Positions 38,402 through 41,761 of a DNA stretch of 41,761 bases are shown piece after piece. The notes under the pieces are model-generated. The model searched no databases. It saw only the letters and a program-made list of their open reading frames with translations, and had not been told where the DNA came from. The stretch comes from an uncultured Eubacteriales bacterium (GTDB lineage Bacteria; Bacillota; Clostridia; Lachnospirales; Lachnospiraceae): positions 1 through 41,761 of the forward strand of contig CASECT010000031.1 in the NCBI GenBank assembly GCA_949286525.1, read 5' to 3'. Position 1 is the first letter of the stretch, and each line of letters opens with the position of its first letter. Made by a program: the position numbers and the translations under genes.

Positions 38402-39925
38402 TCACTGGAACAGCTGAGCGATATCCACATTCTGGTAAAAGAAGTGAAGAATATCCTGATACTCCCACCCTTCCGCCGCCAGCGCCTTCGCGCCGTTCTG
38501 GCTCATGCCGGCTCCGTGGCCGCATCCGCCGCCCCGCAGAATCCACTGGCCGTCCTGTACATCCAGCACAAAAGCCGCGCTGTAGAGACGGTCAAGTCCC
38601 GTGACAATCTCTCCGTTCTGAAGCTGTACCGAGGTCTGGGCAGCTCCGAGGATATCCCGGATATGCAGTTCCCCCGTGACGTCTACCGTCCCGCAGGCAA
38701 ATTCCAGACGTGCCTCCTCGATTACCCCTCCGGCATTTCGTCTGGCAACCTGAAAATTTTTCAGTTCCCCAAAGGCCTCCGCCGCTGTCGCAATCTCTGT
38801 ATCACTTATTCTTCTCTTCAGATCGTCGGAATATACCACATCCTCCCCGTCTTTTTTCTTCAGATTCACAATAGCATCAACTATATTTGTTGTCCTGTTT
38901 GCCACGTCGATTACCGCCACCCAGCGGAAATAACGTTCATCCCGCTCAAAGGCATGTTCATCCCATCCCCGGATATAGCTGTCGAAATCTGCCGGCGCAT
39001 CCCCTGATCCCACATATACAGACTGGAATACATTTTCATCCGCGCCGAAAATACTGCCTGACTGGGAAAATCCGCAGGATGTGGAATAGTAAAGAGCATC
39101 TACAATCTGTCCCTGACTCATCAGTACCTGCCCGGATGTTTCCCGTACTGCCTGGGCGCTCAAATCCCCTGAAGCCTCATGGTTATACACCTGAAAAGAA
39201 ACCGTATCGTCCAGATGGGCGTGAAATTGCGGATAATGTTCCTGCCCGGTCTGAGCGTAGAGATAACTTCTGGCACAGACTGCCTGGGCTTTCAGTGCTT
39301 CCAGTCCGTAGCTCTCCGGCATCTCGCTCGGCAGCACGCACGCCAGATAATCCTCCGTGGACACTTCATTAACCAGGGCATATCCGTTTGCGTCCTGCCA
39401 GACTTCCAGCGTCCCCCGGTAACCGGGCTGCTGCCGGGCTCCGGTCTCGTCCACCAGATAAAGACATCCGCCTTCCGCAGGAGTAACCACAGTAGTTCCG
39501 GTAAAAGAGACCAGGTTTTCCGCCCCGAAGGAGACGACTTCATTCGGTCCCAAGGTCCACTGCTTCGTCCCGTCATCCAGAATACAGCCGGCATCTCCCG
39601 CGATTCGGACACTTCCCCGATAGGTATCGGTATCGTTTTCCAACAGCAGCACTCTTACCGCCTCCATGGGTTCCGGAACAGAAGCTTCTGCCTCCTCCCC
39701 AGTCTGCCCCGCCGTCTGCTGTCGGAGAAACTCTGAAAGCCGCGCCTGTATCTCCCTGAGATTTCCCATCCTCCACTGCATATAGAGAATACTTCCGATC
39801 AGCCCCATGCACAGCAGTATATAAAAGCAGACGAGCCCTCGCCTTCCGCGGCTGCTCCCGCTCCTTTTCCCGAAATGTCGTATGTATTTTCTATAATTGT
39901 GCCCATACCTTCTTTGCCGTGCCAA
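38402..39925 (-). CDS. SpoIID/LytB-domain protein
   Basis: This 507-residue protein has a basic N-terminus, one membrane helix (about 30-50) and an extracytoplasmic SpoIID domain. Conserved segments are LPSEMPESYGLEALKAQAVCARSYLYA (residues about 197-223), including the catalytic-type Glu of PSEMP, then YYSTSCGFS and the C-terminal GGGCGHGAGMSQNGAKALA. SpoIID-type enzymes are lytic transglycosylases that thin septal peptidoglycan during engulfment; the LytB subgroup modifies vegetative amidases. This member is longer than B. subtilis SpoIID (about 340), with a roughly 100-residue N-terminal beta-rich insert. The TTG at 39925 has AGGAG 8 nt upstream. Whether it is SpoIID itself or a paralogue is open. 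Confidence 0.88.
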   Translation of the reverse strand: MARQRRYGHNYRKYIRHFGKRSGSSRGRRGLVCFYILLCMGLIGSILYMQWRMGNLREIQARLSEFLRQQTAGQTGEEAEASVPEPMEAVRVLLLENDTDTYRGSVRIAGDAGCILDDGTKQWTLGPNEVVSFGAENLVSFTGTTVVTPAEGGCLYLVDETGARQQPGYRGTLEVWQDANGYALVNEVSTEDYLACVLPSEMPESYGLEALKAQAVCARSYLYAQTGQEHYPQFHAHLDDTVSFQVYNHEASGDLSAQAVRETSGQVLMSQGQIVDALYYSTSCGFSQSGSIFGADENVFQSVYVGSGDAPADFDSYIRGWDEHAFERDERYFRWVAVIDVANRTTNIVDAIVNLKKKDGEDVVYSDDLKRRISDTEIATAAEAFGELKNFQVARRNAGGVIEEARLEFACGTVDVTGELHIRDILGAAQTSVQLQNGEIVTGLDRLYSAAFVLDVQDGQWILRGGGCGHGAGMSQNGAKALAAEGWEYQDILHFFYQNVDIAQLFQ

Positions 39926-40000: not shown

Positions 40001-40024
40001 ATAAAAAAGGAAGCCGAAGCTTCC
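40001..40024 (-). terminator. Terminator of the structured RNA
   Basis: GGAAGC-TTCG-GCTTCC, a 6-bp stem with a stable UUCG tetraloop, followed by six T on the minus strand. Confidence 0.9.
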
Positions 40025-40287
40025 CTTTCCTCTTCTGTACTCCCTCCTCCGAAGAGGATTTCTCTTAAAAGTAAGAACCCAAAATGCCGGGCCTGTATTT
40101 TGACTCCTAGCAAAGCTAGGTGGGTAACCGCAACCTCTCTTCTGCCTTCCGCTGCGCAATGACGGCCTGACATCCAATCGGCAATAATAGGAATCCCGTT
40201 TAAAGTAAATGTAGGTTCAAAATCACAGGTTAAATCGAACATCCCAGGCTTTTACACTGTCGCGAAAGCCTTCCGCCTTCGTTCCAT
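40001..40287 (-). ncRNA. Stand-alone structured RNA of about 287 nt (6S RNA candidate)
   Basis: The minus strand has its own consensus promoter and a perfect terminator. In between are long-range nested stems: AAAAGCCTGGG (40253-40243) pairs with CCCGGCATTTT (40091-40081), and CCTGTGATTTTGA (40229-40217) with TCAAAATACAGG (40103-40092), with small bulges. Local hairpins are CCTAGC-TTT-GCTAGG (40120-40106) and TCCTC-TTCG-GAGGA (40058-40045). A 90-codon frame across it has no ribosome site and runs through the terminator, so it is not coding. A closing helix, an internal bubble and an inner arm suggest 6S RNA, but I cannot confirm the family. It ends about 75 nt before the SpoIID-like gene. Confidence 0.72.
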
Positions 40288-40293
40288 GAACAC

Positions 40294-40322
40294 ATTATAA
40301 TACATTCCCCATACTTCTTCAA
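40294..40322 (-). promoter_or_regulatory. Promoter of the structured RNA
   Basis: TTGAAG (40322-40317), a 17-bp spacer and a perfect TATAAT (40299-40294) on the minus strand. It is among the strongest promoter matches in the window and faces away from the citrate synthase gene. Confidence 0.75.
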
Positions 40323-40429: not shown

Positions 40430-40455
40430 ATTAAATTAGAGAAGGAGGTATGCAT

Positions 40456-41761
40456 ATGGAAAATACAACTTTTAGCGAAGTCACCCCCCAACTTGTAAAA
40501 TTAGCAGAGCTTTCACGGGAATCCTCCTACATCGATCCCGAACTTTACACAAAATATGACGTAAAGCGCGGTCTTCGAGATCTGAACGGCAAAGGTGTCC
40601 TGGTCGGCATTACCGACATCTCCGAAGTCAACTCGAAGAAAATGGTTGATGGAAAGGAAATTCCCTGTGATGGCCAACTGTTCTACCGCGGTTATAACGT
40701 GCAGGAAATCATCAAAAAAATGCCAAAGGACAGCCACTTTGGTTTCGAGGAATGCACCTATCTGCTGCTGTTCGGCAAGCTTCCCAATCGCGAGGAACTC
40801 ACTGAGTTCTGTCAGCTTCTTGGCAGCTACCGGTCTCTGCCGCCGAATTTTGTGCGGGACATTATAATGAAAAAGCCCAGCAAAGATCTCATGAATACGC
40901 TGGCCCGCAGCGTATTGACGCTGTATTCCTACGATGACAACCCGGATGACACGTCCATCCCAAATGTTCTGCGGCAGTGCCTGCAGCTGATCAGCATGTT
41001 CCCTCTGCTGTCTGTCTATGGTTATCAGGCATTTCGCCACTACCATATGGGAGACAGTCTGATCATCCACTCTCCCAAGCCGGAGTATTCCACTGCAGAA
41101 AATATTCTTCACTGTCTGCGGGATGACACCAAATTCAGTCCTCTGGAAGCCAAGCTTCTGGATGTGGCTCTCGTATTACATATGGAACACGGCGGAGGAA
41201 ACAATTCTACCTTTGCCACCCATCTGGTATCTTCCTCCGGAACCGATACCTACTCTGTCATCGCCGCGGCTCTCGGATCTCTGAAGGGGCCCAAGCACGG
41301 CGGGGCTAACATCAAAGTGGTAAAGATGTTCAACGACATGAAGGAGACGCTGAACGACTGGACCGACGAGAAGGAAGTCGGCAATTATCTCCGGGCTCTG
41401 CTTCACAAGGAAGCCTTCGACAAGGCCGGCCTGATTTATGGTATGGGCCACGCCGTTTACTCCCTTTCGGACCCCCGTGCGGTTACTTTCCATTCCTTCG
41501 TGGAGGCGTTGGCCGAGGAAAAGGGATACCAGAAAGAATTCGCCCTCTACTCTCTGGTGGAGAGACTCGCTCCCCAGATCATCGCCGAGGAGCGCAAGAT
41601 TTACAAGGGCGTCAGCCCCAACGTAGACTTCTACAGCGGATTTGTATATCAGATGCTTGGTCTTCCCATGGAGCTCTACACGCCGATCTTCGCCATTGCG
41701 CGTATCGCCGGCTGGAGCGCACACCGCCTGGAGGAGATCTGCCAGAATGGAAAGATCATGC
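40456..41761 (+). CDS. Citrate/2-methylcitrate synthase (3' end beyond window)
   Basis: The frame opens at the ATG at 40456 and stays open for 435 codons to the right edge; the family is about 430-460 residues, so only a little is missing. It condenses acetyl-CoA (or propionyl-CoA) with oxaloacetate. Catalytic residues are present: His245 in LHMEHGGGNNS, His281 in KGPKHGGAN and Asp339 in SLSDPRA. The usual GHRVY motif reads GHAVY, with Ala replacing Arg. The ATG at 40450 is rejected, as it touches the AAGGAGG ribosome site; 40456 is 6 nt away. It is divergent from the structured RNA. Citrate versus methylcitrate specificity is not decided. Confidence 0.92.
   Translation, partial: MENTTFSEVTPQLVKLAELSRESSYIDPELYTKYDVKRGLRDLNGKGVLVGITDISEVNSKKMVDGKEIPCDGQLFYRGYNVQEIIKKMPKDSHFGFEECTYLLLFGKLPNREELTEFCQLLGSYRSLPPNFVRDIIMKKPSKDLMNTLARSVLTLYSYDDNPDDTSIPNVLRQCLQLISMFPLLSVYGYQAFRHYHMGDSLIIHSPKPEYSTAENILHCLRDDTKFSPLEAKLLDVALVLHMEHGGGNNSTFATHLVSSSGTDTYSVIAAALGSLKGPKHGGANIKVVKMFNDMKETLNDWTDEKEVGNYLRALLHKEAFDKAGLIYGMGHAVYSLSDPRAVTFHSFVEALAEEKGYQKEFALYSLVERLAPQIIAEERKIYKGVSPNVDFYSGFVYQMLGLPMELYTPIFAIARIAGWSAHRLEEICQNGKIM

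What the first reader, a model, noticed from the sequence alone, without database searches (positions are those of the whole stretch)
40001..40322. Unassigned, highly structured, independently transcribed RNA of about 287 nt
A consensus promoter and a UUCG-loop terminator bracket a non-coding stretch with two nested long-range helices (about 10 and 12 pairs closing over roughly 110-150 nt) and two perfect local hairpins. The layout (closing helix, asymmetric bubble, inner arm) fits 6S RNA, but size and 3' domain are not an obvious match, so it may be a lineage-specific RNA. It lies between a SpoIID-like gene and citrate synthase.
Basis: partly seen in the sequence, partly recalled or inferred. 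Interest (0 to 1): 0.72.

Follow-up and report, generated by a model that had tools for sequence, protein, structure and literature searches.

The report
Ordinary 6S RNA gene
The stretch is the gene for 6S RNA, a well-known small RNA that binds and holds back the bacterial RNA polymerase, here with a somewhat long leader and tail; it is ordinary.

Summary
The match covers the whole model (1-187) at window 40253-40072, minus strand, 62.6 bits against a gathering score of 46.4; it is the only RF00013 match found in its assembly. Of 61 genomes searched (own plus 60 relatives), 57 have a match and 53 pass the cut-off. On 33 aligned sequences from the same family the consensus structure keeps 96.2% of pair cells, with compensatory changes at 18 of 43 pairs against 9.8 in shuffles. 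Promoter and UUCG terminator are where described. The larger size (about 285 nt, predicted) is a leader of about 34 nt and a tail of about 69 nt around a normal 182-nt core; both lengths vary among relatives. By its citrate synthase the host falls among the Lachnospiraceae. Function is inferred from the family; nothing was measured here.

The parts
40294..40322 (-). sigma-A-type promoter: -35 TTGAAG (40322-40317), 17-nt spacer, -10 TATAAT (40299-40294); predicted start near 40288-40287
   Evidence: 10 of 12 matches; a promoter by the rule lies upstream of 54 of 59 6S hits (one of the 60 left out for short upstream sequence), against a mean of 13.5 and a maximum of 22 in 100 first-order Markov resamplings of the same stretches
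40254..40287 (-). 5' leader of about 34 nt, with a 7-bp hairpin at 40281-40263; probably trimmed from the mature RNA (inference)
   Evidence: in the same-genus genome G001 the -10 box ends 5 nt from the 6S start, against 40 nt here
40072..40253 (-). 6S RNA core (182 nt), full-length match to RF00013
   Evidence: 62.6 bits, model positions 1-187, gathering score 46.4
40236..40248 (-). 5' strand of the conserved closing stem (partner 40089-40078)
   Evidence: helix 1, 99.5% of cells paired in 33 sequences
40078..40089 (-). 3' strand of the conserved closing stem (partner 40248-40236)
40217..40229 (-).
   Evidence: 90.1% of cells paired, 7 of 12 pairs with compensatory change
40092..40103 (-). 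3' strand of the same helix
40198..40216 (-). 5' side of the central bubble; the predicted product-RNA (pRNA) start lies near 40211, with the template running to about 40223 (inference)
   Evidence: motif TTTTGA.CCT.CA in 54 of 60 hits, the window included; pRNA hallmarks from PMC8414754
40106..40120 (-). 3'-central-bubble hairpin CCUAGC-UUU-GCUAGG
   Evidence: helix 9: 100% of cells paired in 33 sequences, 2 pairs with compensatory change; hairpin of at least 5 bp in 55 of 60 hits
40045..40058 (-). UUCG hairpin in the 3' tail, not followed by a T run
   Evidence: sequence
40003..40030 (-). intrinsic terminator with UUCG loop and T run
38402..39925 (-). downstream gene on the same strand, SpoIID-domain protein, TTG start as listed (context, not part of the RNA)
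   Evidence: PF08486, E 1.9e-25
40450..41760 (+). divergent citrate synthase gene, runs off the window (context)
   Evidence: PF00285, E 6.7e-113

Best explanation
The region is the 6S RNA gene of a bacterium of the Lachnospiraceae. Shown here: minus-strand promoter and terminator sequences, a core that matches the 6S covariance model from end to end, and the conserved 6S secondary structure with covariation. Inferred from the family: the rod-like RNA with its central bubble mimics an open promoter, binds the RNA polymerase holoenzyme carrying the housekeeping sigma factor, and so damps transcription when growth slows. On nutrient supply the polymerase copies a short product RNA from the bubble, probably starting near 40211, which refolds 6S and releases the enzyme. 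Also inferred: the leader (about 34 nt) and tail (about 69 nt) are precursor sequence, at least partly trimmed, and some read-through into spoIID is possible.
For: RF00013 full-length match at 62.6 bits against a cut-off of 46.4. Matches in 57 of 61 genomes searched, own included, 53 over the cut-off. In 33 same-family sequences, 96.2% of 1417 pair cells are standard and 18 of 43 pairs show compensatory change against 9.8 (sd 1.3) in shuffles; sliding partners by 1-3 columns drops pairing to 32.1-48.5%. Conserved pRNA-template motif in 54 of 60 hits and a 3'-bubble hairpin in 55 of 60. Promoter and terminator in the window; promoters upstream of 54 of 59 hits, control mean 13.5, maximum 22. 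Helix, bubble, hairpin and product-RNA features are those described for B. subtilis 6S-1 and lactic acid bacteria (PMC8876501 passages; PMC8414754 Results).
Against: No expression, polymerase binding or pRNA was measured. Folding energy of the whole transcript is no better than shuffled sequence. The predicted primary transcript (about 285 nt) is longer than the bands of about 200 and 175 nt of Clostridioides difficile 6S (PMC3649979 passages). My simple terminator rule found a terminator within 150 nt of only 36 of 60 hits. Alignment A1 used 33 of the 60 hits, all of one family and over the cut-off, so its counts lean towards good members; the structure was derived from the same alignment; the shuffle control does not remove shared ancestry.
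Confidence: 0.97

Rival explanations
1. An unassigned, lineage-specific structured RNA that merely resembles 6S.
For: Unusual length through leader and tail.
Against: Full-length RF00013 match well above the cut-off; matches to the same model in 57 of 61 genomes; 6S motifs shared with most hits.
Confidence: 0.01
2. A 6S core inside a longer functional RNA, whose leader hairpin and UUCG tail hairpin act in their own right (for example in processing control or in regulating the downstream spoIID gene).
For: Leader hairpin (5 of 200 shuffles as stable) and tail hairpin (12 of 200) are more stable than most shuffles; spoIID lies downstream on the same strand, also in the same-genus genome.
Against: In the same-genus genome the -10 box is only 5 nt from the 6S start, so there is no such leader; leader length varies from 1 to 66 nt among 54 hits with a promoter, and the longer leaders printed look unlike each other by eye; a strong terminator separates 6S from spoIID.
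Confidence: 0.06
3. An untranslated leader of citrate synthase or of spoIID rather than a separate RNA.
For: Both genes are adjacent.
Against: Citrate synthase is divergent; the 6S promoter and terminator sequences are on the minus strand and bracket the RNA. For spoIID the terminator intervenes.
Confidence: 0.01

Closest known systems
6S / SsrS RNA family, Rfam RF00013
   Same: Full-length model match over the cut-off, closing stem, central bubble, apical arm, own promoter sequence.
   Different: Nothing found in the core; the predicted primary transcript has a longer leader and tail than most of the relatives examined.
Bacillus subtilis 6S-1 RNA (PMC8876501, passages read)
   Same: Short 3'-bubble hairpin and a helix (P2) beside the bubble that the product RNA would open; product-RNA template in the 5' side of the bubble.
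   Different: No binding or product-RNA data here; one copy found in this incomplete assembly, whereas PMC8414754 lists B. subtilis among species with two. The sequences were not aligned directly.
Clostridioides difficile 6S RNA RCd3 (PMC3649979, passages read)
   Same: Consensus sigma-A promoter, 6S fold.
   Different: There bands of about 200 and 175 nt by Northern blot; here a primary transcript of about 285 nt is only predicted. Sequences not compared.
6S RNA of Clostridium phytofermentans, a Lachnospiraceae member (PMC5171806, passages read)
   Same: Same bacterial family; a 6S RNA is listed there from Rfam.
   Different: Its sequence was not compared here.

Membership tests
6S RNA (RF00013) | covariance-model score above the curated gathering score | tested here: met
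   62.6 against 46.4 bits, model 1-187 of 187
6S RNA (RF00013) | closing stem, central bubble, inner arm conserved with covariation | tested here: met
   96.2% of cells paired, 18 of 43 pairs with compensatory change in 33 sequences
6S RNA (RF00013) | conserved product-RNA template in the 5' side of the bubble | tested here: met
   TTTTGA.CCT.CA in 54 of 60 hits including the window; hallmarks after PMC8414754. The start position itself is inferred.
6S RNA (RF00013) | housekeeping-type promoter sequence just upstream | tested here: met
   10 of 12 match in the window; 54 of 59 hits against a control mean of 13.5. Transcription itself was not measured.
6S RNA (RF00013) | binds RNA polymerase holoenzyme and templates product RNA | not testable with these tools
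   needs biochemistry
6S RNA (RF00013) | mature RNA of about 180-200 nt | tested here: inconclusive
   Core is 182 nt, predicted primary transcript about 285 nt; mature ends unknown

The most novel reading that the evidence does not exclude
The primary 6S transcript of this species carries an added leader hairpin and a two-hairpin tail that control its maturation, so that active 6S appears only after cleavage.
Probability: 0.06. Interest if true: 0.35.

Novelty: already known. Interest (0 to 1): 0.07.

Why it matters
It removes a false lead: a standard Rfam scan identifies the RNA. It adds a 6S RNA gene with a covariation-backed closing-stem register and a testable product-RNA site for a family in which my search for '6S RNA' together with 'Lachnospiraceae' found one paper in the held library.

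Tried and rejected
Folding energy alone as evidence of structure: rejected, z = -0.14. Weak Rfam matches in the tail (LhrC, mir-4788, mir-627, snR83): rejected, 16.3-24.7 bits against cut-offs of 75-110. A second 6S copy in the genome: none found at E up to 1, though the assembly is 85.9% complete. A repeated motif TACAAAAGA in the tails of relatives: in 5 of 59 loci, not pursued. A plasmid relative of the region: no match by megablast. Search for the leader alone elsewhere in the genome: not done; only the 351-base stretch was searched, with one match, itself.

Rows dropped before counts: alignment A1 holds 33 of the 60 hits (same family, over the cut-off). Left out are 27: the 24 hits of 22 genomes of other families of the order (G037-G060, of which G047 and G048 have no hit), and the below-cut-off family members G005, G031 and G035. 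One search left out G035 (16 nt of upstream sequence). One search left out G035 too. The profile was built from 56 of the 60 hits (without G005, G031, G035, G045).

Papers: PMC8414754, outline with abstract and the Results section; PMC8876501, PMC5171806 and PMC3649979, passages only; the other papers, search listing only.

Full report
What is there. The finding covers 40001-40322. On the minus strand a promoter TTGAAG-17-TATAAT (40322-40294, 10 of 12) and a UUCG-loop terminator (40030-40003) bracket it. A scan of the whole window against Rfam at gathering thresholds gave 2 matches: a T-box leader at 37431-37199 and 6S RNA (RF00013) at 40253-40072, both on the minus strand. The 6S match is full length (model 1-187), 62.6 bits against 46.4. 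It is the only RF00013 match in the assembly at E up to 1 (1.90 Mb, 85.9% complete, so a second copy could be missing).

Relatives. Among 61 genomes (own plus 60 relatives), 57 have a match at E up to 0.001 and 53 pass the cut-off; there are 60 hits in all because three genomes have two. The citrate synthase next door has its best named relatives in the Lachnospiraceae (best 84% identity), so the host is placed there by that gene. In the same-genus genome G001 the order citrate synthase (divergent), 6S, spoIID is the same, with 86% and 63% identity for the two proteins. Among 80 named citrate-synthase loci, 25 hold a 6S match (one, L052, partial) within the stretch held, which reaches at most 3 kb upstream of the gene; in 2 of the 80 (L034, L035) a SpoIID match was found too. 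The best citrate-synthase match, L033, shows no 6S in the 1.6 kb held upstream. So the neighbourhood is shared in the genus and in some relatives only.

Structure. On alignment A1 (33 of the 60 hits) RNAalifold gives 43 pairs. Counting: 96.2% of 1417 cells paired, 18 pairs and 107 cells with changes on both sides against 9.8 and 41.8 in shuffles, and 0 of 500 shuffles reached the observed value on any of the five measures; sliding the partners by 1-3 columns lowers pairing to 32.1-48.5%. The structure was derived from the same alignment, which favours it in the sliding test. The 3'-bubble hairpin CCUAGC/GCUAGG is paired in all 33 rows; the Rfam consensus structure instead pairs two of its bases with the 5' side of the bubble.

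Size. The core is 182 nt. The predicted transcript is about 285 nt because the -10 box ends 40 nt before the core and the terminator ends 69 nt after it. Among the 54 hits with a promoter by my rule the distance runs from 1 to 66 nt and the window ranks third. The largest value, G008, may be a wrong site, since a TATACT-like box lies closer to its 6S (by eye). In the same-genus genome the distance is 5 nt, so the leader is not shared with the closest relative. My terminator rule found a terminator within 150 nt of 36 of 60 hits; in 22 of these 36 it ends within 40 nt of the core, and in 9 it ends 65 nt or more away, the window (69) and G001 (65) among them.

Mechanism. According to the papers, 6S mimics an open promoter, binds the housekeeping holoenzyme (PMC3649979, passages), and is released when a product RNA is copied from the bubble (PMC8876501, passages). 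PMC8414754 (Results section) gives hallmarks of the product RNA: GG at positions 4/5 or 5/6, AA at 9/10 in lactic acid bacteria and B. subtilis, and an adenine next to the start. Here the template UUUUGAACCUACA would give a product RNA starting near 40211 with GG at 4/5, AA at 9/10 and an A at 40210. This is a prediction.

Verdict. The finding is ordinary. The remaining question is whether the leader and tail hairpins matter, and the lack of the leader in the nearest relative speaks against it.

Noticed in passing
window 37431-37199 (minus strand): T-box leader (RF00230, 108.7 bits against a cut-off of 93), about 170 nt upstream of a same-strand ORF 37031-35994 whose product looks by eye like the alpha subunit of phenylalanyl-tRNA synthetase (label recalled, not searched).
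   Followed up: no
window 38395-37469 (minus strand): Gene with a BrkB-type domain (PF03631, E 2e-40) downstream of spoIID; the Pfam name 'virulence factor' is a family label only.
   Followed up: partly
L143 (G002), downstream of its 6S gene: The motif TACAAAAGA occurs four times within 150 nt downstream of the 6S core; it occurs in 5 of 59 downstream stretches (150 nt) and in 0 of 59 upstream stretches (100 nt). Meaning unknown.
   Followed up: partly
L003 and L139 (G041); L004 and L140 (G056); L015 and L141 (G025): Three of 61 genomes carry two RF00013 matches. In G056 the two lie in tandem about 50 nt apart; one of the two in G041 (L003) lacks the template motif, CCCACCT and the 3'-bubble hairpin by my patterns, perhaps a 6S-2-like paralogue.
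   Followed up: no
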